NCBI GenBank assembly: GCA_034926675.1
Contig: JAYFQW010000036.1
Span: 1 to 35,860 of the forward strand
Length of the DNA: 35,860 nt
Source: Clostridia bacterium
GTDB taxonomy: Bacteria; Bacillota; DTU025
Reading direction: 5' to 3'
Position 1 is the first letter of the stretch. Each line of letters starts with the position of its first letter. The notes under the pieces were generated by a model. The model was not told the origin of the DNA, did not search any database, and saw only the letters and a program-made list of their open reading frames with translations. Both the position numbers and the translations under genes were made by a program. Positions 3,081 to 24,217 of the stretch are shown here, piece by piece.

Positions 3081-3100
3081 GAAGGGGGAGCGGGCGAGAC

Positions 3101-3496
3101 ATGGACAAGAAGATCAGAGTTCTCGTGGCCAAGCCCGGCCTGGACGGCCACGATAGGGGCGCGAAGGTAGTGGCGCGTGCCCTGCGTGATGCGGGCATGG
3201 AGGTCATCTACACAGGACTCAGGCAGACTCCGGATCAGATTGTGGCCACGGCCATTCAGGAGGATGTGGACGCGATCGCTATGTCGATCCTATCCGGCGC
3301 TCACGGTTATCTCTTCCCGCGGGTGATGGAGCTTCTTGCGGAGCGTGGGGTGGACGATATCCTGGTAATAGGGGGCGGGATTATCCCTGAGGAGGATATC
3401 CCTGCGCTTAAGGAATGCGGCATTGCTGAGATATTTGGCCCGGGCACACTCACATCCGACACGGTCAGGTTCATCCGCGAGAACGTCAAGAAGTAG
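3101..3496 (+). CDS. mcmA2: Methylmalonyl-CoA mutase, small (B12-binding) subunit
   Basis: This 131-residue protein is a stand-alone cobalamin-binding Rossmann-like domain. It carries the DxHxxG signature as D15, H17 and G20; H17 is expected to be the lower axial ligand of cobalt. The later SILSGAH and VIGGGIIP segments are also typical of the fold. It pairs with the large subunit encoded 20 bp upstream, giving the two-gene mutase seen in archaea and many anaerobic bacteria. A purine-rich ribosome site (GGAAGGGGGAG) precedes the ATG. Length and sequence agree with the family and there is no sign of damage. Confidence 0.95.
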
Positions 3497-3511
3497 GGGC
3501 GGTTTTCATCT

Positions 3512-4564
3512 ATGAGCCACATCGATCTCGCGCGCCGCGCCATATGCCGCGACATCAGAGCGGTGTCGCGCCTGATGACGGTCTTCGAAAACAAGGCAGA
3601 GGGCTTCGAGGAGGCTTACGCCACCGTATATCCCTACACTGGCCGCGCTCACGTGATCGGCGTGACGGGCCCGCCAGGCTCTGGTAAGAGCACCCTCGTA
3701 GACAAGATCGTCGGGGGGTTCAGAGAACGGGGCAGATTGGTGGGAATCGTCGCAGTGGATCCTACCAGCCCTTTCACTGGAGGGGCGCTTCTCGGTGACC
3801 GCGTACGCATGCAGCGCCACTCCACCGATGACGGTGTGTTTATCCGAAGCATGGGCACAAGAGGGCACCTGGGCGGGGTATCCCGCGCAACCTCGGGAGC
3901 GGTCGATGTGCTAGATGCCGCGGGCTACGATTACGTGATAATCGAGACGGTCGGCGTCGGCCAGTCAGAGGTGGAGATTGCCTCCATTGCCGATACCGTG
4001 GTTTTGGTGCAGGTGCCCGGGCTCGGCGATGATATTCAGGTGATCAAAGCTGGCGTGATGGAGATTGGCGACATCTTCGTCGTCAACAAGAAGGACCGAC
4101 CAGGTGTCGAGAGAACTGTGGCGGAGATCCGGGTCGCTCTCGAGCTCGGCGGCGACGGGCGCGCCGGCGGGCGCGGATCGGGAGGACATCACGGTTCAGC
4201 GGGATCCGCAACTAAGTCGAAAGCGGGGCCGGAAGGGGAGTCCGCGTCCGCGTCGGGCAGTGCGCCGGGTTGGCGCCCTCCGATTCTTCAGACAATGGCA
4301 GAGACGGGCGAGGGTGTGCCTGAGTTGTGCGCCCAGTGTGATGCGCACTTCAATGCCATGGAGAGTTCCGGGGCCCTAGCGGAGCGACGGTACCGGCGGG
4401 CGCGCACAGAGACCATGCAGATCACTTCGGAGCGTATATGGAGAGGCCTCGAAGACGATCCACATGCGCTTCAGGCTGCGGAGGACCTAGCGTGGAGCGT
4501 GGCGCGGCGGGCTACTGATCCGTACGGAGCTGCGGAGGCACTCTACAGGATGCTTGTGGGATAG
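3512..4564 (+). CDS. meaB: MeaB/ArgK-type G-protein chaperone of methylmalonyl-CoA mutase
   Basis: This is a GTPase that protects and reloads adenosylcobalamin on methylmalonyl-CoA mutase. The Walker A motif GPPGSGKST lies at residues 53-61, the AVDPTSPFTGGALLGDR segment follows, ETVGVGQSE is the G3 region, and NKKD (residues 192-195) is the G4 specificity motif. The C-terminal part has the expected helical dimerisation region after WRPPI. Unusually, about 40 residues rich in Gly, Ser and Ala (about 211-252) sit between the G domain and the WRPPI segment. This is longer than I expect for the family and looks like a GC-rich linker expansion. The gene follows mcmA2 by 15 bp and precedes the epimerase by 12 bp, which matches its role. 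Confidence 0.93.
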   Translation: MSHIDLARRAICRDIRAVSRLMTVFENKAEGFEEAYATVYPYTGRAHVIGVTGPPGSGKSTLVDKIVGGFRERGRLVGIVAVDPTSPFTGGALLGDRVRMQRHSTDDGVFIRSMGTRGHLGGVSRATSGAVDVLDAAGYDYVIIETVGVGQSEVEIASIADTVVLVQVPGLGDDIQVIKAGVMEIGDIFVVNKKDRPGVERTVAEIRVALELGGDGRAGGRGSGGHHGSAGSATKSKAGPEGESASASGSAPGWRPPILQTMAETGEGVPELCAQCDAHFNAMESSGALAERRYRRARTETMQITSERIWRGLEDDPHALQAAEDLAWSVARRATDPYGAAEALYRMLVG

Positions 4565-4576
4565 GAGGGACATGAT

Positions 4577-4990
4577 TTGATCAAGTCGGTTGACCATATC
4601 GGGATTGCAGTCTCCGATCTCGACGCGGCCATAAGGGTGTACACCGATACCCTAGGCATTGCACTGAACGGCGCCGAGACTGTGCCGGAGCAGAAAGTGA
4701 GAGTGGCTTTTCTCCCAGCGGGAGAGACTGAGATCGAGCTTCTCGAATCGACAGATCCTGAGGGCCCCATCGCCAAGTTCATCGAGAAGAAGGGAGAGGG
4801 CATCCAGCACATCGCCTTCAGGGTGGATGACATAGATGCTGCTCTTGAAGAGATGAAGGCCAAAGGCGTGCGTCTTATCGATGAGAAGCCTAGATACGGG
4901 GCTGGAGGTGCGCGAATCGCGTTCCTGCATCCTAAGTCCACTGGTGGAGTCCTCATCGAGCTATGCGAGAGGGAAGGGGAGAAGAAGTAG
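4577..4990 (+). CDS. mce: Methylmalonyl-CoA epimerase
   Basis: This is a 137-residue vicinal-oxygen-chelate (glyoxalase fold) enzyme that interconverts (R)- and (S)-methylmalonyl-CoA. Both halves of the fold are visible. Likely metal ligands are H7 in VDHIGIAV, H78 in IQHIAFRVDD and E128 in VLIEL, with further family signatures in ETEIELLE. The start is TTG at 4577, with AGGAGG about eight bases upstream. It links the mutase, which makes the R isomer, to the convergent decarboxylase operon, which uses the S isomer, so it belongs functionally to both operons. No anomalies are visible. Confidence 0.94.
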   Translation: MIKSVDHIGIAVSDLDAAIRVYTDTLGIALNGAETVPEQKVRVAFLPAGETEIELLESTDPEGPIAKFIEKKGEGIQHIAFRVDDIDAALEEMKAKGVRLIDEKPRYGAGGARIAFLHPKSTGGVLIELCEREGEKK

Positions 4991-4991
4991 C

Positions 4992-5699
4992 ATGATGAGA
5001 AATGGAAAACTGATCACCGCCGCTATTGCGGCGACCTTGGCCCTACTCGTGTTTGCCGGGGCGTGTTCTGCCCAGGTAGGCGCGATGTCCGGCAACTCCG
5101 TGGGATGGGTCTTCCTGAAGACTGACGAGCTGAACGGGCAGCTCACGGATCATGGGTTTGCCGAGATGCCCAAGGGCATGTTCATCTGGGGCGGATATGG
5201 AATAGGCGATATTCCTGGCGGAAAGTGGTCCATCGGCGGATGGGGCGCCGGTGGCAATGCCAAGTCGGTTTCCGGCTCTGGAGCCTCTGCGAAAACCGCG
5301 ACGCTCGCGCTTTCCATGGGCGGCATCATGGCGCAGTACAACATCAGCGTGTCCGAGAAAGTCAGGTTTGGGCTCGGTGCGGTGCTCGGCGGCGGAGCTG
5401 CGACGCTAACCGCAACCTCAGGGCAGGTGGGTGGTTTCGAAGATCTGCTTGGCCCCGGGCATTCCTCGTCCGCATGGCGACCCTATCTGCTGGCGCAGCC
5501 TCAGGCATCACTGGCGTTCCCAGTGTCGCAGATGATCGACGCTAGGATCTCGGGAGGCTATACGTTTATGTATGCCCCCGTGGGCTGGATTGAAGGATCA
5601 AGGTTCCGCGAGCATTTCCAGGGCCCGCTCAAGACGATTGGTGTTCCATTCATCGAGCTGGGCATATCATTTGGCGGCCCGATGGGGGCATCTGACTAA
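4992..5699 (+). CDS. Exported Gly-rich protein, possibly a beta-barrel, unknown function
   Basis: This is a protein of about 235 residues with an N-terminal signal peptide (basic MMRNGK, then a hydrophobic stretch ending near CSAQV). I do not recognise the family. The mature part alternates short Gly-rich segments with amphipathic strands such as RFGLGAVLGGGAATLT and ends in a FIELGISFGG strand. That pattern resembles outer-membrane beta-barrels and, if real, would imply a diderm host. The FAGAC segment is a poor match to a lipobox, so cleavage by signal peptidase I is more likely. The ATG at 4992 starts 1 bp after the epimerase stop and has an AAGGGGAGAAG ribosome site inside the epimerase gene, so the two are co-transcribed. 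Why it sits in a methylmalonyl-CoA operon is unclear. Confidence 0.6.
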   Translation: MMRNGKLITAAIAATLALLVFAGACSAQVGAMSGNSVGWVFLKTDELNGQLTDHGFAEMPKGMFIWGGYGIGDIPGGKWSIGGWGAGGNAKSVSGSGASAKTATLALSMGGIMAQYNISVSEKVRFGLGAVLGGGAATLTATSGQVGGFEDLLGPGHSSSAWRPYLLAQPQASLAFPVSQMIDARISGGYTFMYAPVGWIEGSRFREHFQGPLKTIGVPFIELGISFGGPMGASD

Positions 5700-5739
5700 C
5701 TGATCCGGCGCCAAGCGCGGCACAGGCAGGCCACTGGAA

Positions 5740-5787
5740 GAGCCCCAGACTCGCGCGGCGTGCCGCTCGGAGCCTGGGGCTCGTTTT
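5740..5787. terminator. Intrinsic terminator between convergent operons
   Basis: A perfect 9-bp stem, GAGCCCCAG (5740-5748) with CTGGGGCTC (5774-5782), is followed by GTTTTC on the plus strand. The loop contains a second small stem, GCGGC/GCCGC. It lies between the plus-strand mcm operon and the minus-strand mmd operon. On the minus strand only scattered T residues follow, so termination is clearest for the plus strand. Confidence 0.8.
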
Positions 5788-5825
5788 CATTTGCGCATTG
5801 CTTACGGGGAATCCCAAGAAATCGA

Positions 5826-6962
5826 CTAGAGCCCTCCAAACCGCGACAACAGTACGCCCGCAACTATGGCCGAGCCTATTACCCCCGCCACATTCGGACC
5901 CATAGCATGCATCAGCAGGAAGTTGCCGGGCTTCTCCTCCTGCGCCACTACCTGCACCACTCGAGCGGCCATGGGAACGGCCGACACTCCAGCGGAGCCG
6001 ATAAGCGGGTTAACCTTTCTCTTGGAGAGCCAGCACATCAGGTCGCCGAGGAGTACTCCGCCTGCAGTGCCTCCTGAGAACGCGATGAGCCCCAGGATGA
6101 TGATGCTTATGGTTTTCCAGTTAAGGAAGCTGGCGGCGTTCGCGGTTGCGCCCACCGTGGTGCCTAAGAAGATCGTTATGATGTTGATGAGTTCGTTCTG
6201 CGCCGTTTTCGAAAGCCGGTCCACGACTGCCGATTCGCGGAGCAGGTTGCCCATCATCAGAGAGGCTACCAGGGCTGCAGCTGATGGCAGCATTAGTCCA
6301 ACAACCAGTGTGACGATTATTGGGAACAGGATTCGCTCAGTCTTCGACACGGGACGAAGCTGCTCCATCACGATCTCGCGGTCCGTCTTCCTTGTCAGCG
6401 CCCTCATAATCGGGGGCTGGATGATAGGAACCAACGCCATGTAGGAGTAGGCCGCGATGGCAATGGGCCCGAGCAAGTGTGGCGCCAGTCTGGTGGTCAC
6501 GTAGATCGCCGTCGGTCCGTCGGCGCCTCCGATTATGCCGATGGAGCCTGCCTCAGCCGGCGTGAAGCCAAGCAGAAGAGCGCCGATGAACGTGATGAAT
6601 ATCCCAAATTGAGCTGCCGCCCCGAGGAGGATGGTGGATGGATTCGCGATGAGAGGACCGAAGTCGGTCATCGCTCCGACGCCCAGGAAGATGAGCGGCG
6701 GGTATATGCCGAGCTTAACCCCTTGATACAGATAGTAGAGGAGCCCGCCGATCACGCCGTCCTTCGGGCCATCCATGAGCCCTGCAAGAGGCAGGTTCGC
6801 GAGCAGCATTCCGAATGATATGGGCAGGAGAAGCAGGGGCTCGAATTTCCGGACAATCGCCAGGTACATGAGTATGCCTGAGATTGCGAACATGATGATC
6901 TCTTTGTAGGTTATGGCCGCGAAGCCTGTGGACCGAAGAAAGCCAACCATAGCATCGGCCAA
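5826..6962 (-). CDS. mmdB: Sodium-pumping methylmalonyl-CoA decarboxylase, beta subunit
   Basis: This is the integral-membrane subunit (378 residues) that decarboxylates carboxybiotin and exports Na+ in the OadB/GcdB/MmdB family. The sequence is strongly hydrophobic with about ten membrane segments. It carries the conserved [19 protein letters not shown] motif, containing the key aspartate of the family, and [14 protein letters not shown], plus the late [13 protein letters not shown] motif. It is the last gene of a four-gene minus-strand operon (mmdA, D, C, B). The predicted TTG start has an AAAGGGG sequence about nine bases upstream; an internal ATG four codons later is an alternative. Specificity for methylmalonyl-CoA over oxaloacetate or glutaconyl-CoA comes from context: the mutase and epimerase are adjacent. 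Confidence 0.93.
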
Positions 6963-6983
6963 GGAAAGTCGCCCCTTTCTCCG

Positions 6984-7379
6984 TTAAGCGGGGTCGATCG
7001 TCAGAAGAGCGTCTCCAGTGTTCACCGACGCGCCCTTCTCGACCGCAATACCCCTGACGACTCCAATGCGTCCAGCGAAGATCTCATTCTCCATCTTCAT
7101 GGCTTCGAGCATCATCACAACTGTCCTGGGCTCGACCTTGTCGCCGGCTTTCACCTTGATATCGATAATAGTGCCTGGCATCGGGGCCTTCACTGCGTTA
7201 GCTTTGCCCGAGCCGGATGGCTTGGATGGTGCGGCCGGCTTGGCCGGCGCCGCCTGGGCAGTCGGGACAGCGGGAGCAGTCGGCGCGACTGGCGCATGGG
7301 TCACTGCAGAAGGCACGCCAACCTCATCGACTTCAACATCGTATGCATTTCCGTTGACACGGACGCGGAACTTTCTCAC
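6984..7379 (-). CDS. mmdC: Biotin carrier subunit of methylmalonyl-CoA decarboxylase
   Basis: This 131-residue biotinyl carrier protein has a short N-terminal beta region (MRKFRVRVNG), an Ala/Pro-rich flexible linker at about residues 28-60, and a C-terminal biotinyl domain. Lys95 in EAMKMEN is the biotinylation site. The carrier shuttles CO2 between the carboxyltransferase MmdA and the membrane pump MmdB. A GTG start is used, with AGGAGG upstream. The gene lies between mmdD and mmdB, as in known methylmalonyl-CoA decarboxylase operons. The Ala/Pro linker is what allows the long swing of the biotin arm. Confidence 0.95.
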   Translation of the reverse strand: MRKFRVRVNGNAYDVEVDEVGVPSAVTHAPVAPTAPAVPTAQAAPAKPAAPSKPSGSGKANAVKAPMPGTIIDIKVKAGDKVEPRTVVMMLEAMKMENEIFAGRIGVVRGIAVEKGASVNTGDALLTIDPA

Positions 7380-7406
7380 TTCACCGTTCCTCCTTGATAT
7401 CGAATG

Positions 7407-7871
7407 CTATTGCCTCATGGCTCGCTGCCGGCCGGCCATGTTATCGCGCCTTCCAGCTAGACCCCACAGGTTAGCCTGGGCAGGATACGCGCGCGCGGAT
7501 GCCCCGGCAGCATCTGGGCGGGTCTGTTCACCAGTGATGATCGCCATCACAGCTGCGATAGCTGCTATCTCTTCCTCAGCACGAGCGGACGGCTGCCCTG
7601 CATGGTCTGCCGCTGGTGCAGCAATCGCGTCCGGCTCGGGTTCTGGCGCTAGGTCAGTCTCTTCACCTGTGTGAGATTCCTCTTCATCCTCGCCATCATC
7701 TTGGCTTCCACCGGCTCCAGCTCTGGCAGTGCCATGTTTGCCATTGGACATCTTCGCCATCATCAGCATCACGCCCTGAAGGATGGCAAGGCCCACGAAG
7801 GTGACTGCCATTCCCATTAGGGTCGTCTGCAGCCCCAGGCCGAGCTTGCCAAGTAGTGTCATCTGCTCCAT
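7407..7871 (-). CDS. mmdD: OadG-family small membrane subunit (delta/gamma)
   Basis: This is a 154-residue protein with one N-terminal membrane helix (GLGLQTTLMGMAVTFVGLAI, about residues 10-40) typical of the sodium-pump decarboxylase gamma/delta subunit, which stabilises the complex and anchors the carboxyltransferase. The rest is an acidic, then Ala/Pro-rich, low-complexity tail, longer than I would expect, with no enzymatic motif. The ATG start has a GGGGAGG site upstream. It lies 15 bp downstream of mmdA and 27 bp upstream of mmdC. The assignment rests on the helix signature plus operon position, since tail sequences in this family are poorly conserved. Confidence 0.85.
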   Translation of the reverse strand: MEQMTLLGKLGLGLQTTLMGMAVTFVGLAILQGVMLMMAKMSNGKHGTARAGAGGSQDDGEDEEESHTGEETDLAPEPEPDAIAAPAADHAGQPSARAEEEIAAIAAVMAIITGEQTRPDAAGASARAYPAQANLWGLAGRRDNMAGRQRAMRQ

Positions 7872-7886
7872 TTGTATCGCCTCCCC

Positions 7887-9437
7887 TTACACCGGGATGT
7901 TCCCGTGTTTCTTAGGCGGTCGGTTCTCGCGCTTGGACGATAGCACGTCGAGAGACGCGATGATCTTAGCGCGCGTCTCAGCCGGGTCGATGACGTCATC
8001 GATGTAGCCACGGGATGCTGCGACGTACGGGTTGGCGAACTTCGTCCTGTAATCGTCTATTTTATCAGCCCGCGCGGCCTCTGGATTCTTGGCTTCTTCG
8101 ATGTCTCTCCGGAATATTATGTTCGCTGCGCCATCTGGCCCCATCACTGCTATCTCAGCTCCTGGCCAGGCCAGCACCGTATCAGCGCCAAGATCTCTGC
8201 TGCACATGGCCAGATACGCGCCTCCGTAGGCCTTCCGAACAATCACCGTCACCTTCGGGACTGTCGCCTCTGAGTATGCGTAGAGCAGCTTGGCGCCGTG
8301 CCTGATTATCCCGCCGGTCTCCTGGTTCACGCCGGGCAGGAACCCGGGCACATCCACTAGGTTCAGCACTGCCACATTGAATGCATCGCAGAACCGGATG
8401 AACCTCGCTGCCTTGTCGGACGCGTTGATGTCAAGGCAGCCTGCGGCGATCTTCGGTTGGTTGGCGATGATGCCGACGGGATAGCCGCCCACGCGTGCGA
8501 ACCCCACGATGATGTTGGCAGCGTAGTGCTCGTGCACCTCTAGAAAATCGCCGCCGTCGATTATCTTGTTGATCACGGCGTGCATGTCATACGGTCTGTT
8601 GGATTCAGGAGGAATGATGTTTCGCAGCTCGGCGACTATCGTCGATGCCGCCTCGCCCGCTGCTGAGCCAGCCGGAGCGTCTTCAAGGTTGTTTGACGGA
8701 AGGAACGACAGAAGCTTGCGGATCGTGAGGAAACACTCGTCCTCAGAGTCATGCATGAAGTGAGCCACGCCGCTGACGCGGTTATGCGTGCCGGCGCCGC
8801 CCAACTCCTCAGCGGTGACCTCTTCCTTAGTGACTGCCTTTATCACCTGAGGGCCTGTAATGAACATATTGGCGCCCTGAACCATGAAGACGAAGTCGGT
8901 GATGGCGGGGGAGTACACGGCGCCGCCTGCGCACGGCCCGAGAATCACCGAGATCTGTGGGATGACTCCCGACGCTATGGTATTCCTGTAGAAGATCTGG
9001 CCGTACCCGGAGAGAGCATCGACGCCCTCCTGAATACGTGCTCCGCCTGAATCGTTGATTCCAATGAGGGGGGCGCCGACCTTCATGGCCATGTCCATGA
9101 CCTTGCATATCTTCTTCGCGTGCATCTCGCCCAAGGAACCGCCCATTACGGTGAAGTCTTGGGAGAAAACGAACACCTTGCGCCCGTTCACGGCGCCATA
9201 TCCGGTTACGACTCCTTCGCCTGGCAGATCCTGCTCAGGCATCCCGAAATCCTGGCATCTGTGCTCTACGAACATGTCGAGTTCAGTGAAGGTCCCCGGG
9301 TCCAGCAACTTCTCAATCCGCTCTCTCGCAGTGAGTTTCCCGCTCTGATGCTGCTTCTCGATCCTCTTTGCTCCGCCTCCCTGGAGGACTTTCTCTCTCC
9401 GGGCGGCCAGATTCTGCAGCTTGTCATTGTCGCCCAA
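7887..9437 (-). CDS. mmdA: Methylmalonyl-CoA decarboxylase alpha subunit (carboxyltransferase)
   Basis: This 516-residue cytoplasmic subunit of the acyl-CoA carboxyltransferase family moves the carboxyl group of (S)-methylmalonyl-CoA to biotin on MmdC. Two crotonase-like halves are visible. The first has [39 protein letters not shown] and [17 protein letters not shown] with the oxyanion-forming glycines. The second has [13 protein letters not shown] and [12 protein letters not shown] with the [13 protein letters not shown] segment. The TTG start is supported by an AGGTGAG site a few bases upstream. It heads the operon mmdA-mmdD-mmdC-mmdB. It could be named propionyl-CoA carboxylase beta on similarity alone, but the membrane pump subunits decide the function. 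Confidence 0.95.
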
Positions 9438-10795: not shown

Positions 10796-11923
10796 GTGAG
10801 CACGGCATGCGCTGCAGCACAGATCATCGCCGAGAACGTAGACAGCTTAGTCACCATCGATTTCCACGCCCGCGGGATTGTTGAACCCATCTACAGGGCA
10901 GCCAGAGCCAGGCAGGGTGGGCAACCTCTGGCGTATCGCGCGGCGTTGGCGCTCGCAGGGGCGTGTGCGCCCAGCGAGGGCGGGATTTACGCTAGGCCGA
11001 CTGTGATCATCGGGACCGGATTCATGATCCGAGCTGCAGGCGCTCCTGAGACAGACGGAATCACAGGGGCTGCGCTTCTCGCTAGGGGCCTTACCATGGC
11101 GCACAGGGCCATTCCTTTGATTGTGTCGGAAGAAGCTGCAATCGACGTTCTGCAGGCTGCATGCTCTGCGGCTGGGTTGGCGCCTGCTATTGTACGCAAC
11201 GGAGCAGGCGATGAGATGCAGGTTGCATCAGCGGTGGAGGCTTTTAGGTGTGGCGCTGACGTGGGTGTGCCGCCGGTTGTTCTGGTCTCGTTCCCCCTGG
11301 ATCGCAATAAGGCCCTAGCTGCTGCGCAGTCCATGGCGAGCGCAATAGCTCCTCAGGCCATGATCTCGATTGAGAGGCCGGGCCTGAACAGGAGAGGCGT
11401 GCACCACAACTCATGGGGGCGGTCGATATCGGATATCACTGCATGCGTCGACGAACTCTTCCTGGAGCTGCGAAGGCGCGGCACTCTCACGGTGGCCATA
11501 GGTGATCTCGGAAACGAACTGGGGATGGGGTGCATTTCCGATACCGTGGAGTGGATGACGCCATTCGGCAGGGAATGCTCCTGTCCGTGCGGGGGCGGCA
11601 TGGCCTGTTCCATTGAGTCAGACGTGACAGTCGTCGGTTCCGTATCCGACGACGTTGCCTACGGCATACTCGCATGCATGGCCCACCTGAGCGGGCAGCC
11701 TGAGGTGCTTCCCAGCCCAGAACTGGGCCTCGCGGTGCTCGACGCTGCGGTAGCCGCCGGCGCTGTCGACGGGCTGACTGGAGAGAGATCCGCCTCCATC
11801 GACATGCTTGACGCGTATGTACATTCATCCATCCTTCAGCTGCTCAAGGCGATCCTGGATTACGCCGACCGTCATACATCTCTTCGGCCTGAGTTCCTAA
11901 CGCATCTGGCTTCGTTTCAATAG
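10796..11923 (+). CDS. DUF4392 (D-glutamate cyclase C-terminal-like) protein
   Basis: This 375-residue soluble protein is recognised as DUF4392, the domain that forms the C-terminal part of mitochondrial D-glutamate cyclase. In bacteria it is often encoded alone. Signatures are GTGFMIRAAGAPETDGITGAA near the N-terminus, SIERPGLNRRGVHHNSWG, AIGDLGNELGMG, and a Cys-rich patch ECSCPCGGGMACSIESD that looks suited to bind metal or form a thiol site. The GTG start has a GAGAAGGGGG site upstream. Its neighbour is gamma-glutamyltransferase, suggesting a link to gamma-glutamyl or D-glutamyl compounds. That link is inference, and the actual reaction of stand-alone DUF4392 proteins cannot be read from sequence. 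Confidence 0.75.
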   Translation: MSTACAAAQIIAENVDSLVTIDFHARGIVEPIYRAARARQGGQPLAYRAALALAGACAPSEGGIYARPTVIIGTGFMIRAAGAPETDGITGAALLARGLTMAHRAIPLIVSEEAAIDVLQAACSAAGLAPAIVRNGAGDEMQVASAVEAFRCGADVGVPPVVLVSFPLDRNKALAAAQSMASAIAPQAMISIERPGLNRRGVHHNSWGRSISDITACVDELFLELRRRGTLTVAIGDLGNELGMGCISDTVEWMTPFGRECSCPCGGGMACSIESDVTVVGSVSDDVAYGILACMAHLSGQPEVLPSPELGLAVLDAAVAAGAVDGLTGERSASIDMLDAYVHSSILQLLKAILDYADRHTSLRPEFLTHLASFQ

Positions 11924-12068
11924 TGCGACGCCCGCGGCAGGACTGAGTCTTCTAGCGTCGTATTCAGTACCCAAGCGCAATCGTGAGGGCAATGCGGATT
12001 TCTGGGATGGCATGTCAGTACGGTTGCGCTGTTGGGTTCAATTGGCCAGAATAAAGGAGGACTGCCGA

Positions 12069-13769
12069 ATGCGAAGGTACTGGATCGCTGCAATGTGCTG
12101 CCTACTCGTGGGTATCATGGTTGGAACGCCGGTGCTGTGCGCACAAGTGGATGCGCACGCCCCGAAAGACACTGTCGCGGAGCACGGCATGGTAGCAGCC
12201 GCTCATCCTCTTGCCTCGATGGCGGGGGTCGAGATCTTAAGATCAGGCGGAAATGCAATCGATGCTGCAGTAGCTGCTGCACTCGCGCTCAACGCGGTTG
12301 AACCGAACGCGTCCGGCCTCGGGGGCGGCGGTTTCATGGTGATCCGTTTCGCCAAGACTGGCGAGGTGGCAGTAATCGACTACAGAGAGAAAGCGCCGGC
12401 ATCGTCCACGAAGGACATGTACGCTTCCGACCAGGCCAAGAAGGAGCGATGGACCGTACTTGGCGGGAAGTCGGTTGGCGTTCCAGGCGCCGCTAAAGGC
12501 CTGGAAACCGCGCTTCAGAAATTCGGCACGATGACCTTCGGGCAGGCAGCTGCTCCCGCGATCAAACTCGCGGAAGAAGGATTCGTGGTGTCGCCGATGC
12601 TCAGCGGGCTGATCAAAGACAACTACGACAAGATCGTTCAGTACAACAATCCTGATGATGTTCCGTATCTCCGGGATGGCCTTGCGCTGGAGCCAGGCGA
12701 TATCCTCAAGAACCCCGAGCTTGGACAGACCCTGAGGCTTATCGCAGAGAAGGGCTCTGATGCGATATACCACGGTCCGATAGGCGAGAAGATGGTTGCG
12801 GCGGTGAACCGAAACGGCGGGAACATGACGATGCAGGATTTTGCCGACTATACTGCCGTCATGAGGGAGCCGGTGCGCGGCAACTATAGGGGATATGAAA
12901 TCATCTCCATGCCTCCGCCGAGCTCTGGCGGCACTCACTTGATTCAGATATTGAACGTGATGGAGAACTTCGACGTGAAGGCCATGGGTCACAACTCACC
13001 TCAGTACATACACACCCTGGCTGAGACGCTCAAGATGGTTTTCGCCGACAGAGGCGCTTTCATGGCGGACACCGATTTCGTGAAGGTCCCAGTTAAGGGT
13101 CTGGCATCGAAGGAATACGCAAAGACCCAGGCGGACCAGATCAAGCCGGACAAGGCGATGGCCGAGTTCAGGCCGGGCGAACCCCAGAAGTACGAGCATG
13201 AGAGCACTACTCACCTTACAGTCATTGATCAGCAGGGGAACATCGTGGCCCTGACCCAGACAATCAACTACTTCTTCGGGTCTGGCGTAATGGCCACGGG
13301 AACGGGACTCATGATGAACGATGAGATGGACGACTTCTCAACCAATCCGGCGTCGGTCTCGGCGCCTGAGCCTGGCAAGAGGCCCCTCTCCAGCATGAGC
13401 CCTACAATCATTCTGAAGGACGGAAAGCCTTTCATGGCTCTCGGAACCCCCGGCGCCACCAGGATCTTCCCGAGCCTCGCCCAGATCATCATGAACGTGA
13501 TCGATTTCGGAATGGGGCTGGATGAGGCAATCGAGGTTCCCCGCGTGTGGAGTTCTAGTTCTGCGGGGAAGCCGGGGGCGGTGGCGGTGGAGAGCAGGAT
13601 CCCTGTGGAGACCCGCGAGGCGCTTCAGGCTCTCGGCCACAAGGTGGACGTTAAGGGCGACTGGGACTCCTACTACGGCGCATGCCAGGCAATCATGCTC
13701 GATCAGTCCACAGGTCTGATATACGGAGCAGCGGACTCAAGGCGGCTTGGAGAGGCGATCGGGTTCTAG
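12069..13769 (+). CDS. ggt: Gamma-glutamyltransferase / glutathione hydrolase, secreted
   Basis: This 566-residue N-terminal-nucleophile enzyme is made as a precursor with a signal peptide (basic start, hydrophobic to about residue 24). It hydrolyses or transfers gamma-glutamyl groups outside the cytoplasm. Motifs are the EHGMVAAAHPLAS region, NAVEPNASGLGGGGFMV, VIDYREKAP and the autocleavage site in HESTTHLTV, where T380 is the predicted nucleophile and new N-terminus of the small subunit. PLSSMSPTI is the later substrate and oxyanion segment. ATG 12069 is chosen because AAGGAGGA precedes it by six bases; the open frame upstream lacks a signal. It is likely co-transcribed with the DUF6305-like gene 28 bp downstream. 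Confidence 0.94.
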   Translation: MRRYWIAAMCCLLVGIMVGTPVLCAQVDAHAPKDTVAEHGMVAAAHPLASMAGVEILRSGGNAIDAAVAAALALNAVEPNASGLGGGGFMVIRFAKTGEVAVIDYREKAPASSTKDMYASDQAKKERWTVLGGKSVGVPGAAKGLETALQKFGTMTFGQAAAPAIKLAEEGFVVSPMLSGLIKDNYDKIVQYNNPDDVPYLRDGLALEPGDILKNPELGQTLRLIAEKGSDAIYHGPIGEKMVAAVNRNGGNMTMQDFADYTAVMREPVRGNYRGYEIISMPPPSSGGTHLIQILNVMENFDVKAMGHNSPQYIHTLAETLKMVFADRGAFMADTDFVKVPVKGLASKEYAKTQADQIKPDKAMAEFRPGEPQKYEHESTTHLTVIDQQGNIVALTQTINYFFGSGVMATGTGLMMNDEMDDFSTNPASVSAPEPGKRPLSSMSPTIILKDGKPFMALGTPGATRIFPSLAQIIMNVIDFGMGLDEAIEVPRVWSSSSAGKPGAVAVESRIPVETREALQALGHKVDVKGDWDSYYGACQAIMLDQSTGLIYGAADSRRLGEAIGF

Positions 13770-13797
13770 TTGTGTGAACACGCATGAGAGGAGCCTA

Positions 13798-14379
13798 ATG
13801 ATGAGGCAGGTTGTCCTGAGAACCACAGCTGTACTGGCTGCTCTGATCCTGGTGGCGGTCATCGGCGCGGGGGGCTCGATCGCGGCTGCGAAACCCGCTT
13901 TGATCACCTCCATCGGGCAGAGTGCCGAGGCGGCAATGATCAAGCAGATATGCATACAGAACAAGATCCCGTATGAACTCGATGCCCTGGCAAGGGTGGA
14001 CGCGCTGACTGGCGCGGATAAGCAGGCCCGGCACTCGGCTCTTGTGGTCGCGGTCGGCGGGAGCGCCAAAGGGCTTGGAGCAGCGGGAATCAACAAGGAA
14101 CAGGAACTCGAAAGGGCAGTCGCCCTACTTGAGGCGGCTAAGCGGTTGAAGATGAACATCGTCGTGATGCATGTGGGCGGCGAAGAGCGTCGCGGCGATC
14201 TATCCGATGCGTTCATCCGCGCCGTGTTGCCATACGCGAGCTCCGTTGTCATAGTTGAAGGCGGAGACAAAGACGGCCTGTTCGAGGCGGTTCTCAAAGG
14301 GAAGAACGTGCCGATTACGAAGGTCGGAAAGATCCGCGATACCGGCTTGCCGCTCAAGAAGGCCCTCGGATTGAGCTAG
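13798..14379 (+). CDS. DUF6305-like exported protein
   Basis: This is a 193-residue protein with an N-terminal signal peptide or anchor (MMRQVVLRTT, then a hydrophobic segment ending near AAAKPA). The mature part begins ALITSIGQSAEAAMIK and contains a VAVGGSAKGLGAAGI loop, a VMHVGGEERRGDLSD motif and an ITKVGKI end. This alternating strand-loop pattern suggests a Rossmann-like domain. I associate it with DUF6305, whose function is unknown. The ATG (13798 or 13801) follows a GAGAGGAG site. It sits between ggt and a TRAP-like permease, so a role as a periplasmic or cell-surface partner of that transporter is possible. That is inference, and it does not resemble the usual DctP binding protein. 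Confidence 0.6.
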   Translation: MMRQVVLRTTAVLAALILVAVIGAGGSIAAAKPALITSIGQSAEAAMIKQICIQNKIPYELDALARVDALTGADKQARHSALVVAVGGSAKGLGAAGINKEQELERAVALLEAAKRLKMNIVVMHVGGEERRGDLSDAFIRAVLPYASSVVIVEGGDKDGLFEAVLKGKNVPITKVGKIRDTGLPLKKALGLS

Positions 14380-14419
14380 TAGATAGTGGAGGCCGGAGGC
14401 CCGGAGACGGTCAACTGAT

Positions 14420-14449
14420 GCCCGATAGTTCATACATTCTCGATCGGGC
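14420..14449. promoter_or_regulatory. Stem-loop upstream of the DctM-like gene
   Basis: GCCCGAT (14420-14426) pairs perfectly with ATCGGGC (14443-14449) across a 16-base loop in the 150-bp gap before the DctM-like gene. No T-run follows, so it is not a standard terminator. It could be an mRNA processing or attenuation structure, or chance in a GC-rich gap. The same gap also holds GGGCCGGCCC (14461-14470). Confidence 0.25.
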
Positions 14450-14529
14450 CAGAGGATGATGGGCCGGCCCGGGCCTCAGCCATTTCCCGCCTGCTCCTCC
14501 TGTATGGAAGACCGTGGTGGGCGGGGCAT

Positions 14530-15828
14530 GTGGAGGTGATGTTGTTGCTGTCTGAGGGCGTAGTATTCCTAATAATGGTTGGAGTGTTCATGGGCGCTGC
14601 TTTCGCGTTTGGCCTGCCCATTGGCATATGCCTTGCCATATCCTCCCTAGCTGGTATGCTCGCTGGAGGCGCTGGTTTCGCAGTGAGGCATCTTGTGGAG
14701 GGGGCTTTCGGCTACCTGAACACTATCCTCGTCATTGCCACGGCGATGATGTTCATGAAAGGAATCCAGAAATCAGGCCTGCTGGACACTGTTGCACGGT
14801 GGCTTATTGAGACGTTTCACAGATCCCGCGCGTTGCTCCTCATCGGGCTCACGCTTCTCGTGATGTTTCCGGGCATGATCACTGGATCATCAACAGCGTG
14901 TGTGCTCACCACTGGCGCTCTTGTTGCTCCAGTCTTGATGCACATGGGAGTGCCGAAGATCCGGACCGCTGCAATAATCGCGATGGCGGCGATATACGGG
15001 ATGCTCGCTCCTCCTGTGAACATCCCGGCGATGATCATCGGGGGCGGCATCGACATGCCGTACGTGGGGTTCACAAAACCGCTTCTCCTCGCCACGATTC
15101 CCCTTGCCATCATCGTCAGTCTGTTCCTTGGGCTGCCCTACATGGGCAAGTCCAAATCTCTCGACGACATGAGATCTAGTCTGCCGAAGAGCTATGCCAG
15201 GAAGTACGGGTTCAAGCTGTATCTGCCATTCATCATCCTCGTTGTGCTGATGGCTGGGCCCAACCTCGCGCCTGGCAGGTTCCCCGACCTGGGCATGCCA
15301 CTAGTTTTCCTCATCTCCGCCGTCATCGCCGTGGTCACTGGGAAGCCCGTGCGGATGTGGAGTGTCGCCCGAGAGGCGATCCACGATGCCCTGCCTGTGA
15401 TGGGGATACTGATGGGCGTCGGCATGTTCATCCAGGTGATGACGCTTACCGGGGTGAGAGGCTGGGTTGTGGTTGGGGCGCTGTCGCTTCCTAAGGCCTT
15501 TCTGTATCTGGCGATGGCCATCTCCGTGCCTGCCTTCGGGGCGGTGTCGGCCTTCGGTTCGTCGTCGGTGCTCGGCGTTCCATTTCTTCTCGCACTTCTC
15601 GGAACAACCAACGAGATCGTGGCCGCGTCGGGCCTGACTCTTCTGGCAGGCCTGGGCGATCTTGTCCCTCCCACGGCCCTGGCAGGGATGTTTGCGGCGC
15701 AGATCGTTGATGAGGACAACTACTGGCTGGTTTTGAAGGACTGTCTTATCCCGGCGATTGCAACGGCTGCATGGGGTGTCGTGATGATCCGCTGGGCCGC
15801 GCCGATCGCAAAGTGGATTCTGAAGTAG
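14530..15828 (+). CDS. TRAP transporter large permease-like protein (DctM family)
   Basis: This is a polytopic membrane protein of about 430 residues with roughly twelve hydrophobic segments, in the DctM/ion-transporter superfamily that imports organic acids using a Na+ gradient. Typical segments are PIGICLAISSLAGML, VMFPGMITGSSTACVLTTGA, AIIAMAAIYGMLAPPVNIP and GLGDLVPPTALAGM, forming the paired re-entrant loops. No gene for DctQ (four-helix small permease) or DctP (binding protein) is adjacent. Instead there is a 48-codon membrane protein 12 bp downstream and a DUF6305-like exported protein upstream. The start is ambiguous: GTG 14530 and ATG 14539 are possible, but a GGAGGTG site at 14532-14538 best serves a TTG at 14542 or 14545. 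The substrate is unknown. Confidence 0.8.
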   Translation: MEVMLLLSEGVVFLIMVGVFMGAAFAFGLPIGICLAISSLAGMLAGGAGFAVRHLVEGAFGYLNTILVIATAMMFMKGIQKSGLLDTVARWLIETFHRSRALLLIGLTLLVMFPGMITGSSTACVLTTGALVAPVLMHMGVPKIRTAAIIAMAAIYGMLAPPVNIPAMIIGGGIDMPYVGFTKPLLLATIPLAIIVSLFLGLPYMGKSKSLDDMRSSLPKSYARKYGFKLYLPFIILVVLMAGPNLAPGRFPDLGMPLVFLISAVIAVVTGKPVRMWSVAREAIHDALPVMGILMGVGMFIQVMTLTGVRGWVVVGALSLPKAFLYLAMAISVPAFGAVSAFGSSSVLGVPFLLALLGTTNEIVAASGLTLLAGLGDLVPPTALAGMFAAQIVDEDNYWLVLKDCLIPAIATAAWGVVMIRWAAPIAKWILK

Positions 15829-15840
15829 GAGGTGAGTGCC

Positions 15841-15987
15841 GTGATGGCCTGGGTCTACTGGGGGCTCTGCGTGTTCCTGTTCATTGCTGTGGCATACGAA
15901 CTCGCCACGGAGCGGGATTTCTGGCGGCAGGCCACTGCTGCCTTGGTGCTCATCCCTCTCCTGCTGCGAATCCTCTTGTGGAAGTGA
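15841..15987 (+). CDS. 48-codon two-helix membrane microprotein
   Basis: This tiny gene starts at GTG 15841 or ATG 15844 and stops with TGA at 15985-15987. A strong AGGAGGTGAG site overlaps the stop of the preceding DctM-like gene, showing translational coupling. The product begins MAWVYWGLCVFLFIAVAY, followed by a charged turn (ELATERDFWRQ) and a second hydrophobic segment ending LLLRILLWK, so two membrane helices are predicted. I do not recognise a family. Its position, exactly where a DctQ subunit could be expected, suggests a minimal partner of the permease, though this is inference. It is followed by the deacylase gene after 9 bp. Confidence 0.7.
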   Translation: MMAWVYWGLCVFLFIAVAYELATERDFWRQATAALVLIPLLLRILLWK

Positions 15988-15996
15988 GGGTGGTGC

Positions 15997-17145
15997 ATGG
16001 TGTCGAAGATTGATGCGAGGCTGCGCGCCGCGGCCCTGGCGGTCCTGGTTGTGCTGGCCGTGCTGGTTACAGGGGCTCAGTTCCGCGCGATGTGGAAGGA
16101 CGATCTGATCGTTCCAGGCCCCGGTGTGACGGCGACGAAGATGCTATCGGATTACTTCCCCGGCCTGGCGGGAACTGCCGGTGACACAGAGGTGTTCATT
16201 CTCGAGGGGAAGGCGCCCGGCGCCACATGCTTCATACTCGGCGGCACTCATCCGAACGAGCCGTCGGGGTGCCTCACTGCGATGCTCCTTGTTGAGCGGG
16301 CGCAGGTGAGCAAGGGCAGGCTCGTGGTGGCGCCGAGGGGGAACCGGTCAGGGTTCACCTGCAACGACCCACAGGAGGGTTCGCCGCAGTGGATTCACTT
16401 CACCCTCGCGGACGGGTCCGTGAGGGCATTCAGGTTCGGTTCGCGCGGGACCAATCCCCTGCACCAGTGGCCGGACCCGGATATCTACATCAACCCATCC
16501 GGACAGAGGCTATCCGGGAGTGAGAACAGGAACCTGAACCGCGCCTACCCCGGACGGCCCGAGGGGACGCTCACGGAGAAAGCAGCATACGGCATAATGG
16601 AGGTCATACGGCAGGAGAAGGCGGACATCTCCGTGGATCTGCACGAGGCTTCGCCTGAATATCCTGTGATCCATGCCATAGTTGCCCATGAGCGATCCGA
16701 GGATCTTGCCGCGATGGCGGTGATGGACCTGGATTTCGACGGCATCAGGATGAGGCTTGAGAAGTCGCCGCCCACATTCTACGGCCTGAGCCATAGGGCG
16801 TGGGGCGATTATTCTGAAACCATGGCGCTGCTGATGGAAACGGCCAATCCGAGCCAAGGACGGCTCAGAGGGCGGACGGACGAGCATCTGGTCCTCACCG
16901 GGCAGGACAGATTTTACGTGAAAGCCGCTGAACTCGGAAGGCTCTACGTGCCATTCGACTCGCATGGCCATCCCATAGAAGAGCGAGTGGGCCGACATAT
17001 GAGCGCACTCGCGGCTATCTGGAGGAACGCTGAATTCGTAGGCAGTATGCTCCCTATCGAGGTAGAGGGCCTGCCCGACTTCGCGGAGATCATGGAGGAA
17101 GGATATGGGCATTTCCTCAACCCTGCGCCGGCGGGAGCAGTGTAA
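15997..17145 (+). CDS. Membrane-anchored AstE/AspA-like zinc deacylase (M14 clan)
   Basis: This is a 382-residue protein with an N-terminal membrane helix (about residues 10-28, AAALAVLVVLAVLVTGA), so the catalytic domain is probably outside the cytoplasm. Zinc ligands appear as H85 and E88 in GGTHPNEPSG and H216 in SVDLHEAS; the E in METAN late in the chain is a candidate catalytic glutamate. RNLNRAYPG is another typical segment. The family removes acyl groups from amino acids (succinylglutamate desuccinylase, aspartoacylase) or trims peptides. It lies 9 bp after the microprotein, ending the transporter operon, which suggests the substrate is deacylated near the transporter. The exact substrate is not readable from sequence. 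Confidence 0.78.
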   Translation: MVSKIDARLRAAALAVLVVLAVLVTGAQFRAMWKDDLIVPGPGVTATKMLSDYFPGLAGTAGDTEVFILEGKAPGATCFILGGTHPNEPSGCLTAMLLVERAQVSKGRLVVAPRGNRSGFTCNDPQEGSPQWIHFTLADGSVRAFRFGSRGTNPLHQWPDPDIYINPSGQRLSGSENRNLNRAYPGRPEGTLTEKAAYGIMEVIRQEKADISVDLHEASPEYPVIHAIVAHERSEDLAAMAVMDLDFDGIRMRLEKSPPTFYGLSHRAWGDYSETMALLMETANPSQGRLRGRTDEHLVLTGQDRFYVKAAELGRLYVPFDSHGHPIEERVGRHMSALAAIWRNAEFVGSMLPIEVEGLPDFAEIMEEGYGHFLNPAPAGAV

Positions 17146-17195: not shown

Positions 17196-18095
17196 GTGTC
17201 GCTCAAGGTTCCTTTGCCACAGCGCAGTTGCAGCGTTACACGGATAAAGGAGATCGTAAGCCCCGTCGATTCAAAGCTCGGACTCGCCCACATCCATTTC
17301 GGGCTGGTCAGCGTGGAATCCGGACGGAAAAGGGCGTTCGACTTTGGTCCAATGGAGACTGTTGTTGTCGTACTAGGCGGCGTCGCGGACATTGGGTGGG
17401 AAGCGCCTGAGGCGCATGAGAGGCGAGAACGGGTCGGCGGCAGGCGGGATGTGTTCGATGGCCCTGCATGGGCCATGTACGTGGCGCCGTTCACCACGTT
17501 TTCGATCACAGGTGTATCGCCTGTTGTGGAGGTGGCTCTGGTTCGGGCAGACCCGATAGAGCTCTCCGGCGCAGGTTCCGGCGCGAAATCCGGCGCTGAG
17601 CCTGTCGCTGGCGCGGGGTGCGATGCGCCGGTCTGTGGCGTACACATCGTAAGCCCGGACATGGTGACGATTCGCGAGGCCGGCGCTGGCGCCTGGCAGA
17701 GGCAAGTGCATGAGATAACAGCGAACGGCTGCGGGCCTCAGACGAGCAAGCTCATGGTAGGCGAGGTGTTCAACCCCGCAGGCAACTGGTCAAGCTATCC
17801 TCCCCACAAGCACGATGAGAACGCGGGCATGGAGGAGGCAAAGCTTGAAGAGGTGTGCCATTTCCGAATGAAACCTGAGTCGGGGTTTGCGTTCGCCAGA
17901 GTCTATTCCCCATCCCGAGGATTCGACGAGGCATATGTTGTGCAGAATGAGGACACTCTGGCGATCCCATTCGGTTACCACTCCATGGCCGCCGCTCCCG
18001 GATACGCTCTGTACTACCTGTGGGCTCTGGCCGGAGACAGAAGGCAGCGGCTTGCCACCTATGATCGGCAGCATGCCTGGCTGAAGAACGATTGA
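17196..18095 (+). CDS. iolB: 5-deoxy-glucuronate isomerase (IolB)
   Basis: This 299-residue bicupin enzyme of the myo-inositol pathway converts 5-deoxy-glucuronate to 5-dehydro-2-deoxy-gluconate. The second cupin carries the family's metal motif GNWSSYPPHKHD, followed by EEVCHFRMKPE and later IPFGYHSMAAAPGYALYYLW. The N-terminal cupin has RKRAFDFGPMETVVVVLGG. A Gly/Ala/Ser-rich insert (about residues 125-145) separates the two halves. The GTG start has GGAGGTGGAAGG upstream. No other iol gene is in the window, so it is isolated from its usual pathway partners. Confidence 0.92.
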   Translation: MSLKVPLPQRSCSVTRIKEIVSPVDSKLGLAHIHFGLVSVESGRKRAFDFGPMETVVVVLGGVADIGWEAPEAHERRERVGGRRDVFDGPAWAMYVAPFTTFSITGVSPVVEVALVRADPIELSGAGSGAKSGAEPVAGAGCDAPVCGVHIVSPDMVTIREAGAGAWQRQVHEITANGCGPQTSKLMVGEVFNPAGNWSSYPPHKHDENAGMEEAKLEEVCHFRMKPESGFAFARVYSPSRGFDEAYVVQNEDTLAIPFGYHSMAAAPGYALYYLWALAGDRRQRLATYDRQHAWLKND

Positions 18096-22728: not shown

Positions 22729-23895
22729 TGCGATCAGAACCGCTCTGGATCCTCCGTCGCATACCTGCAACTCGCCCATAATGAGCGGGATCCCAGGACA
22801 GGTCATCCCGTAGCTAAGATCATCTGGAACTTCGGCCGCGAGGACTCAGTGGACAAGGAGGCCCTGAGAAGGCTTATGCAGAGCATCGCTAGGGTGCTCT
22901 CGCCTGAGGAACACGCTGCGGCGCAGGCGGGCTTGGATATTGGATCGGTTCACATCAACTCCGACTAGGAGCTGGGAGGAGCGTGGGTTCTGGATCAGCT
23001 CTGGGAGAAGCTCGGCATACGGTTGGCCCTGAAGAGACTGCTCGCCGATAGGCAGTTTGCGGCGCCGGTAGAGAGGGCCATCTTCGCCATGGTCGCGGAC
23101 CGGGCCCTTGCGCCCAGCAGCAAGCTGGCGATCGAGGACTGGGTCGAAAACGACGTCGTCATCGAGGGCTTGCCGCAGGCGCCGGTTCATCAGCTGTACC
23201 GTGCTGTGGACTTCCTCATTGAGAATGACGAGCAGATCCAGGAGTCGGTGTTCTTCTCCACGGCAAACCTCTTCAACCTGGAAGTGAACCTCATCTACTT
23301 CGATACTGGCTCAACCTACTTCGAGGTTGAGCCAGACGCCGAGGACGAGGAGGAACTGCGCCGGCTCGGGCATAGCAAAGACCACCGCCCCGACCTGCTC
23401 CAGGTCGTGATTGGCCTTGCGGTCACGAGAGACGGGATACCGGTCAGATGCTGGGTTTGGCCGGGGAACACCAACGACATGGAGGTTGTGGCCCAGGTCA
23501 AGAAGGACATGTGCGGATGGAAGCTTGGCCGTGTGATCACTGTGGTGGATCGAGGTTTCTCCTCCGCCGATAATCTGCGGCATCTGCAGAGAGCCGGCGG
23601 CCACTACATCGCTGGAGAACGCATGCGGTCCGGAATGGAGTCCGTGGAGGAAGCGTTGTCTCGTCAAGGCCGGTACAGGACCGTCAAGGAGAACCTGGAG
23701 ATCAAGGAGATCGTGGTCGGCGATGGGGAGGCACGGACACGTTACGTGCTGGCAAGAAACCCCTTGGAGGCCGAACGCGACAGGCGCAACCGCGAGTGTA
23801 TGCTCGATATCCTCAAGGAGAGGCTCCGGGATCTCAAATGCACGGAGGGAGAGCATCATTCGAAGGCCGTATGCGAACTCATGGCAAGCCGCAGG
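22729..23895 (+). pseudogene. IS1634-family transposase, decayed
   Basis: The frame begins near 22729 with GSSVAYLQLAHNERDPRTGH and continues KIIWNFGRED and ALRRLMQSIARVL, the normal N-terminus of IS1634-type (IS4 superfamily) DDE transposases, but the first residues and the start codon are lost. An in-frame TAG at 22966-22968 interrupts it before ELGGAWVLDQLWEKLGI. The middle contains the first catalytic aspartate in LIYFDTGSTYFE and the second in ITVVDRGFSS. After SKAVCELMASRRFG (23895) similarity stops, so the C-terminal part with the catalytic glutamate region is gone. The open frame runs on to 24018 into unrelated sequence. The element cannot be active. Confidence 0.8.
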
Positions 23896-24217
23896 TTCGG
23901 GGGCCTCGCGTCTCCAATGGCCGATCTATCTGCTGCTACGCGCATTGTTTGCCTACGCGGTGTCGAAGACGGACAGTCCACATTGCACATAAGATCAAGC
24001 TTATGGGAGAGTCCATGAGAAAGGCTCTCGCCAGCGCCCAACACGAGAAGCTAGACAACGCATGATTCTCACTGCCCCAGCACCAAGGGCTCCCTCGGAG
24101 CACACCTCCTCTGGACACCCTTTACGTCCCATTGCTGGAAGTGCTACGTTGGAGATGTCTTCGTCGCTTCGCTCCGATACTAGGATGCAGAACATCGGTA
24201 ATAGTAGCTCGAGCGCG
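23896..24217. other. Gap with no recognisable gene
   Basis: These 322 bases between the broken transposase and the S41 protease gene contain only short open frames. One ends AHKIKLMGESMRKALASA before a stop near 24063, which could be the tail of another lost gene, but nothing here can be assigned. No terminal inverted repeat for the IS1634 remnant could be seen. Confidence 0.4.

What the first reader, a model, noticed from the sequence alone, without database searches (positions are those of the whole stretch)
10796..17145. Glutamate-themed cluster with a DctM-like permease that lacks DctP and DctQ
DUF4392 (D-glutamate cyclase-like), secreted gamma-glutamyltransferase, a DUF6305-like exported protein, a DctM-like permease, a two-helix microprotein and an AstE/AspA-like deacylase with a membrane anchor lie in one direction with short gaps. 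Three of them suggest glutamyl or N-acyl-glutamate chemistry. The transporter has no normal partners, so the exported DUF6305-like protein and the microprotein may replace them. This could be an unreported uptake and breakdown route for gamma-glutamyl or acyl-amino-acid compounds.
Basis: inference. Interest (0 to 1): 0.62.

Follow-up and report, generated by a model that had tools for sequence, protein, structure and literature searches.

The report
Poly-glutamate breakdown and uptake gene cassette
The window holds one copy of an apparently undescribed, widely conserved bacterial gene cassette that probably cuts a glutamate polymer (poly-gamma-glutamate) or related compounds outside the cell and brings the pieces in through an unusual transporter; in the genomes sampled it is nearly always found together with the genes that make that polymer.

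Summary
The genes are real and correctly named. The "DctM without DctP/DctQ" is no local oddity. It belongs to a conserved core, DUF6305 – DctM-like permease – ~50-aa two-helix protein – membrane-anchored AstE/AspA-like enzyme, found in Bacillota, Synergistota, Fusobacteriota, Spirochaetota, Calditrichota and others. Of 106 permeases with room downstream, 102 have the microprotein and 101 the enzyme. The cassette is tied to poly-gamma-glutamate (PGA) synthesis: in Bacillota 19/19 permease genomes carry the PGA-system marker TIGR04332; in Synergistota 53/58. The window's genome has pgsB-pgsC-TIGR04332 on another contig; a close relative has them beside the same cassette. The partner hydrolase is an exported GGT or an exported C69 dipeptidase, and permease, DUF6305 and deacylase trees each split by partner with a single change. 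DUF6305 is a lipoprotein in monoderms and has a plain signal peptide in diderms, like binding proteins, but is one small Rossmann-like domain, not a DctP fold. Best reading: extracellular gamma-glutamyl hydrolysis coupled to secondary uptake of D/L-glutamate or gamma-glutamyl fragments; the cytoplasmic D-glutamate cyclase fits. Substrate, direction and complex formation are inferred, not shown.

The parts
10796..11923 (+). D-glutamate cyclase-like protein (GLUCM-like_C); no hydrophobic segment, so cytoplasmic; local addition to the cassette
   Evidence: PF14336 210 bits; no TM or signal; also beside the cassette in L072, L075, L097, L102, L140
12012..13769 (+). exported gamma-glutamyltransferase (GGT) of lid-loop-less type; the likely start is Met20 at 12069
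   Evidence: PF01019 560 bits, TIGR00066 550 bits; signal segment; solved small-subunit chains align from residue 399, the catalytic Thr; motif spacing 15 against 25 in 2e0w
13798..14379 (+). DUF6305: exported single-domain Rossmann-like protein, candidate ligand-capture subunit
   Evidence: PF19823 156 bits; AF2 pLDDT 92; conserved cationic residues; lipobox pattern by phylum
14530..15828 (+). DctM-like permease, IT-superfamily fold
   Evidence: PF06808 36 bits; AF2 pLDDT 95; best fold match TRAP SiaQM, TM 0.70
15832..15987 (+). conserved ~50-aa two-helix membrane microprotein with invariant Tyr, Pro and Arg
   Evidence: 36-sequence alignment A5; found near 102 of 106 permeases
15997..17145 (+). 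membrane-anchored AstE/AspA-like zinc enzyme, predicted to face outward
   Evidence: PF24827 31 bits; invariant H85, E88, H216, E281, R182; charge asymmetry around the anchor
17196..18095 (+). KduI/IolB family protein; local neighbour, also next to the cassette in L072
   Evidence: PF04962 226 bits

Best explanation
The cassette is the breakdown-and-uptake arm of a poly-gamma-glutamate (PGA) system. Exported lid-loop-less GGT and the membrane-anchored AstE-like zinc enzyme hydrolyse gamma-glutamyl bonds of PGA or gamma-glutamyl oligomers outside the cytoplasmic membrane. DUF6305, a lipoprotein in monoderms and a periplasmic protein in diderms, captures the released acidic product at a cationic site. 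The DctM-like permease, with the two-helix microprotein as its constant small partner, imports D/L-glutamate or a short gamma-glutamyl fragment by cation symport. In this genome a cytoplasmic D-glutamate cyclase then handles D-glutamate. Paralogous cassettes with exported C69 dipeptidases in place of GGT follow the same plan with another peptide or amino-acid substrate. Shown: conserved gene sets, genome co-occurrence with pgsB/pgsC/TIGR04332, intact catalytic residues, export signals, co-partitioned trees, permease fold. Inferred: substrate, transport direction, coupling ion, DUF6305 as binding protein, microprotein as transporter subunit.
For: Core order conserved across at least eight phyla. 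Co-occurrence with TIGR04332: 19/19 permease genomes in Bacillota, 53/58 in Synergistota, 39/44 across phyla. pgsB-pgsC-TIGR04332 beside the cassette in 46 of 80 permease-fetched loci carrying at least one pgs gene, beside the close relative's cassette L069, and in the window's own genome on C46. Lid-loop-less GGT, a type reviewed as PGA-degrading with an open pocket (PMC8062742). Intact metal-site residues in the anchored enzyme. A carboxypeptidase-related zinc enzyme, PghP, is known to cut PGA (PMC4497714). Cytoplasmic D-glutamate cyclase beside the cassette in six separate loci including the window. Permease, DUF6305 and deacylase trees each split GGT from C69 partners with one change. DUF6305 lipobox in 17/24 Bacillota, 2/31 Synergistota.
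Against: The window cassette is not next to the pgs genes in this genome. Paralogous cassettes with C69 dipeptidases show that PGA cannot be the only substrate of the architecture. Five Synergistota genomes have the permease without TIGR04332 and five the reverse. DUF6305 is not a two-lobed binding protein. No sequence link between the anchored enzyme and PghP. Direction of transport and every substrate are untested. Fisher p-values ignore shared ancestry.
Confidence: 0.55

Rival explanations
1. Gamma-glutamyl carrier cycle. PGA or gamma-glutamyl oligomers made by PgsBC act as donor; exported GGT (or C69) transfers onto amino acids or peptides, and the conjugates are imported or cleaved by the AstE-like enzyme. 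The cassettes are amino-acid or peptide uptake systems and PGA is a currency rather than the nutrient.
For: Usually one pgs set but several cassettes with different Ntn-hydrolase partners in one genome; GGTs are transpeptidases as well as hydrolases.
Against: Lid-loop-less GGTs favour hydrolysis (PMC8062742, PMC9073855). C69 dipeptidases are not known as gamma-glutamyl transferases (own knowledge). No donor role of PGA is known.
Confidence: 0.15
2. Capsule assembly. The cassette helps make, trim or anchor a PGA capsule, like CapD in Bacillus anthracis; the permease supplies glutamate or moves a precursor, and the enzymes set chain length or attach the polymer.
For: Linkage with pgsB, pgsC, TIGR04332 and a two-component system. 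PGA systems are abundant in Synergistetes and Fusobacteria (PMC5542703).
Against: Multiple paralogous cassettes with dipeptidases and one pgs set. GGT is closer to hydrolytic GGTs than to CapD: 431 bits to 2e0w against 136 to CapD 3g9k_L. A cytoplasmic D-glutamate cyclase points to catabolism.
Confidence: 0.15
3. N-acyl-amino-acid uptake and deacylation unrelated to PGA, as the family name AstE/AspA would suggest.
For: PF24827 membership; best solved relatives are AstE-like proteins and DoeB deacetylase.
Against: Near-perfect co-occurrence with PGA genes, frequent GGT partner, no AstE, AspA or DoeB equivalog cut-off reached.
Confidence: 0.08

Closest known systems
Bacterial PGA systems: PgsBCA/CapBCA with GGT, PgdS or CapD; NCBIfam TIGR04012, TIGR04011, TIGR04332
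   Same: PgsB, PgsC and TIGR04332 occur in the same genomes and often the same locus; GGT partner.
   Different: No uptake permease, DUF6305, microprotein or anchored AstE-like enzyme appears in the PGA-system descriptions I read or found by searching.
TRAP transporters (DctP-DctQ-DctM; SiaPQM)
   Same: Permease hits PF06808 above cut-off and its model matches SiaQM best, TM 0.70; exported partner and small membrane partner encoded alongside.
   Different: No DctQ or DctP homologue; a two-helix microprotein and a one-domain DUF6305 instead; matches DASS/INDY carriers nearly as well.
Bacillus GGT / PgdS / PghP PGA degradation
   Same: Lid-loop-less exported GGT; a zinc enzyme related to carboxypeptidase A can cut gamma-glutamyl bonds (PghP).
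   Different: The zinc enzyme here is a membrane-anchored AstE/AspA-family protein with no sequence match to PghP among PDB chains, and it is genetically fixed to a transporter.
AstE / AspA / DoeB deacylases
   Same: Catalytic-domain family PF24827 and conserved metal-site residues.
   Different: N-terminal membrane anchor, extracytoplasmic prediction, below every equivalog cut-off.

Membership tests
TRAP transporter | DctM-type large permease | tested here: met
   PF06808 36.2 bits against cut-off 23.8; SiaQM TM 0.70
TRAP transporter | DctQ small subunit (four helices), separate or fused | tested here: not met
   No DctQ in the locus; both DctQ hits of the genome sit beside other DctMs; the conserved partner has two helices
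TRAP transporter | DctP or TAXI periplasmic binding protein | tested here: not met
   All DctP hits sit beside other DctMs; DUF6305 is one Rossmann-like domain. TAXI proteins were not searched genome-wide
TRAP transporter | sodium-driven, binding-protein-dependent uptake | not testable with these tools
   needs transport assays
PGA (Pgs) system | PgsB ligase and PgsC membrane protein in the genome | tested here: met
   L199 (contig C46): TIGR04012 380 bits, TIGR04011 135 bits, TIGR04332 326 bits
PGA (Pgs) system | cassette linked to the pgs genes | tested here: inconclusive
   Not adjacent in the window's genome; at least one pgs gene present in 46 of 80 permease-fetched loci, and beside the cassette in close relative L069
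PGA (Pgs) system | production of PGA | not testable with these tools
   uncultured genome
PGA-degrading GGT | GGT family with catalytic Thr of the small subunit | tested here: met
   TIGR00066 550 bits; small chains align from residue 399
PGA-degrading GGT | no lid loop over the active site | tested here: met
   motif spacing 15 in all 64 GGTs that fit the pattern (33 did not fit) against 25 in 2e0w; the window protein shows the same shortened segment
AstE/AspA zinc deacylase | HxxE and distal His metal site, catalytic Glu | tested here: met
   H85, E88, H216, E281 invariant in 23 of 23; role assignment from family knowledge
AstE/AspA zinc deacylase | known substrate class (equivalog assignment) | tested here: not met
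   no equivalog cut-off reached

The most novel reading that the evidence does not exclude
A new class of binding-protein-dependent secondary transporter: a DctM-type permease with a two-helix microprotein as its only small subunit and a single-domain Rossmann-like (lipo)protein, DUF6305, as substrate-capture subunit, coupled to dedicated cell-surface hydrolases, with DUF6305 also serving as the ligand subunit of two-component sensors elsewhere.
Probability: 0.35. Interest if true: 0.8.

Novelty: new variant of a known kind. Interest (0 to 1): 0.64.

Why it matters
It gives a testable function to DUF6305, to a conserved ~50-aa membrane protein and to a family of anchored AstE-like enzymes, and it supplies a candidate uptake arm for poly-gamma-glutamate systems in anaerobes of gut, digester and subsurface communities. 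If true, it explains how Synergistota, Fusobacteriota and Clostridia reuse their own or others' polyglutamate, and it adds a transporter architecture that resembles TRAP but is built from other parts.

Tried and rejected
Orphan DctP/DctQ elsewhere in the genome: rejected, all canonical ones sit beside another DctM. DUF6305 as a DctP-like two-lobed binding protein: rejected on fold. A weak dihydropteroate-synthase resemblance of DUF6305 is below significance and was not pursued. Gene order unique to this genome: rejected. KduI and NAGPA as core parts: rejected, rare elsewhere. Microprotein as a shortened DctQ: only looked at by eye, no claim made. Phylum searches centred on locus ids failed until genome handles existed. 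The genus search in Fusobacterium returned three genomes, one with both markers, so it says nothing about F. nucleatum. Paper searches for DUF6305, and for PGA with TRAP and gamma-glutamyltransferase together, returned nothing. The test holding C69 permeases as one clade against all rows is uninformative because unlabelled and mixed rows lie among them; the one-change count among GGT- and C69-labelled rows is the relevant result.

Full report
Observation. The DUF6305 frame is listed from TTG 13747 inside the GGT gene; ATG 13798 is the likely start. KduI/IolB and NAGPA genes follow.

The permease has no TRAP partners. The genome has eight DctM hits; the window's is the weakest at 37 bits. All three DctP hits and both DctQ hits lie beside other DctMs on C2, C3 and C76.

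Conservation. A DUF6305 search of 300 genomes of the phylum found 39 carriers, with up to nine copies in one genome. Regions around the hits show the order DUF6305 – permease – microprotein – deacylase in dozens of loci. An independent scan of named genomes with the permease alignment found 511 relatives; the best 80 come from Synergistota, Bacillota, Fusobacteriota, Calditrichota, Bipolaricaulota, Spirochaetota, Thermodesulfobacteriota and Ignavibacteriota, plus records without a phylum label such as KSB1. Over 122 permeases, 102 of 106 with room downstream have the microprotein nearby and 101 the deacylase; 112 of 119 with room upstream have DUF6305 within 8 kb. Many of those regions were fetched through DUF6305, so the unbiased set is the 80 permease-fetched loci, where microprotein and deacylase are seen in 74 each despite contig ends. 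In some groups (KSB1, Calditrichota) DUF6305 lies after the deacylase instead of before the permease.

What system it belongs to. In many loci three genes lie beside the cassette that score above their NCBIfam cut-offs: PgsB (374/223 bits), PgsC (136/96) and TIGR04332 'poly-gamma-glutamate system protein' (335/100), often followed by a sensor kinase and a response regulator. In the 300-genome Bacillota sample all 19 genomes with the true permease family (over 100 bits) carry TIGR04332, out of 21 TIGR04332 genomes; the two others have their pgs genes at contig edges. In 151 Synergistota genomes 58 have the permease, 58 have TIGR04332 and 53 have both. Across phyla it is 39 of 44. The Fisher p-values (about 1e-28) ignore shared ancestry, but the association spans several phyla. 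The window's own genome has pgsB-pgsC-TIGR04332 on contig C46. L069, from the same family and with a 74%-identical permease, has them divergently adjacent to the same kind of cassette.

Partner enzymes and co-specialisation. The window cassette uses GGT. The two other complete cassettes of the same genome (L076, L077) use Peptidase_C69 enzymes, whose signal-like segment ends just before the conserved Cys-Thr-Ser. On the permease tree, rows with GGT and rows with C69 are separated by exactly one change; the same holds for DUF6305 and for the deacylase (lowest of 50 shuffles 14 and 13). The unit evolves together with its hydrolase, as expected if the hydrolase makes what the unit handles.

Enzymes. 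The GGT is of the lid-loop-less type: the spacing between two flanking motifs is 15 in all 64 cassette-locus GGTs that fit the pattern (33 did not fit it), against 25 in the lid-loop-positive chain 2e0w. A review describes lid-loop-less GGTs as having an open pocket suited to PGA, releasing D- and L-glutamate (PMC8062742), and B. subtilis ggt takes part in PGA degradation (PMC5751247). The deacylase has invariant H85, E88, H216 and E281 and a charge asymmetry around its anchor that places it outside. A carboxypeptidase-related zinc peptidase, PghP, is known to cut gamma-PGA (PMC4497714), so the chemistry is plausible, but no sequence link to PghP was found. The D-glutamate cyclase has no signal or TM segment, so its substrate must be made or brought inside.

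DUF6305. AlphaFold2 gives a confident single alpha/beta domain (pLDDT 92) with no significant PDB match. Its invariant or nearly invariant residues, several of them cationic (K108, R123, H142, R148, R149), lie mostly at or just after strand ends, which suggests one anion site; that is inference. It has a lipobox in 17 of 24 Bacillota but 2 of 31 Synergistota and none of 5 Fusobacteriota, the localisation habit of binding proteins. In other genomes DUF6305 stands without the permease, before a histidine kinase, a response regulator and often an oligopeptide ABC transporter, and three genomes fuse it to an AstE-like domain. A ligand-binding role in transport and sensing fits all of this.

Permease. 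The model (pLDDT 95) matches TRAP SiaQM best (TM 0.70) and DASS/INDY carriers nearly as well. It is an IT-superfamily carrier that may work like a TRAP transporter but fails the membership test for one.

Mechanism and confidence. Best reading (0.55): extracellular gamma-glutamyl hydrolysis coupled to uptake of glutamate or short gamma-glutamyl fragments, with D-glutamate passed to the cytoplasmic cyclase. Co-occurrence, gene sets, export signals, catalytic residues and tree partition are shown. Substrate, direction, coupling ion and complex are inferred. Rivals: a gamma-glutamyl carrier cycle (0.15), capsule assembly (0.15), N-acyl-amino-acid uptake (0.08).

Known and new. PGA systems in Synergistetes and Fusobacteria were noted before (PMC5542703), and PGA production by F. 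nucleatum is reported (cited in PMC3815933). No held paper mentions DUF6305 or joins PGA, TRAP transporter and gamma-glutamyltransferase. The library lacks most subscription journals, so 'undescribed' is limited to it. I rate this a new variant of a known kind, with a real chance that the transporter architecture is a class of its own.

Noticed in passing
L048:5878-12209; similar in L039, L042, L047, L050, L066, L073, L093-L095, L098: In genomes without the permease, DUF6305 stands directly before a histidine kinase and response regulator, often followed by oligopeptide ABC ATPases and an SBP_bac_5 protein: DUF6305 may be a sensor ligand subunit.
   Followed up: partly
L041:8350-9558, L043:8350-9558, L045:8350-9552: Natural fusion of DUF6305 with an AstE/AspA-like domain, between TIGR04332 and a histidine kinase.
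   Followed up: partly
L076:9307-12545; L077:1-3290 and 6873-8480: Paralogous cassettes of the window's genome carry exported Peptidase_C69 enzymes; the signal-like segment ends right before the conserved Cys-Thr-Ser, so signal cleavage could expose the N-terminal nucleophile.
   Followed up: partly
genome G078: L052, L053, L068, L070, L072, L080, L081: One genome carries about eight paralogous cassettes but one TIGR04332 gene, hinting at substrate diversification.
   Followed up: no
window 1404-9437: Methylmalonyl-CoA mutase, B12-binding protein, MeaB, sodium-pumping decarboxylase beta subunit and carboxyl transferase upstream: a propionate / methylmalonyl-CoA cluster.
   Followed up: no
window 23023-24018, 28809-29351, 32915-34011; 27262-28233, 34919-35809: Transposase and HTH remnants and RHS-repeat fragments downstream: a mobile or decayed region.
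   Followed up: no
L170:1316-13885, L142: In Ignavibacteriota/Calditrichota the cassette lies with TonB receptor, PorV-like and T9SS-sorted proteins, so outer-membrane import may feed it.
   Followed up: no
L089:5902-11187: A divergent DUF6305 lies with a hydantoinase/oxoprolinase-like protein, a histone-deacetylase-domain protein and DUF1538.
   Followed up: no
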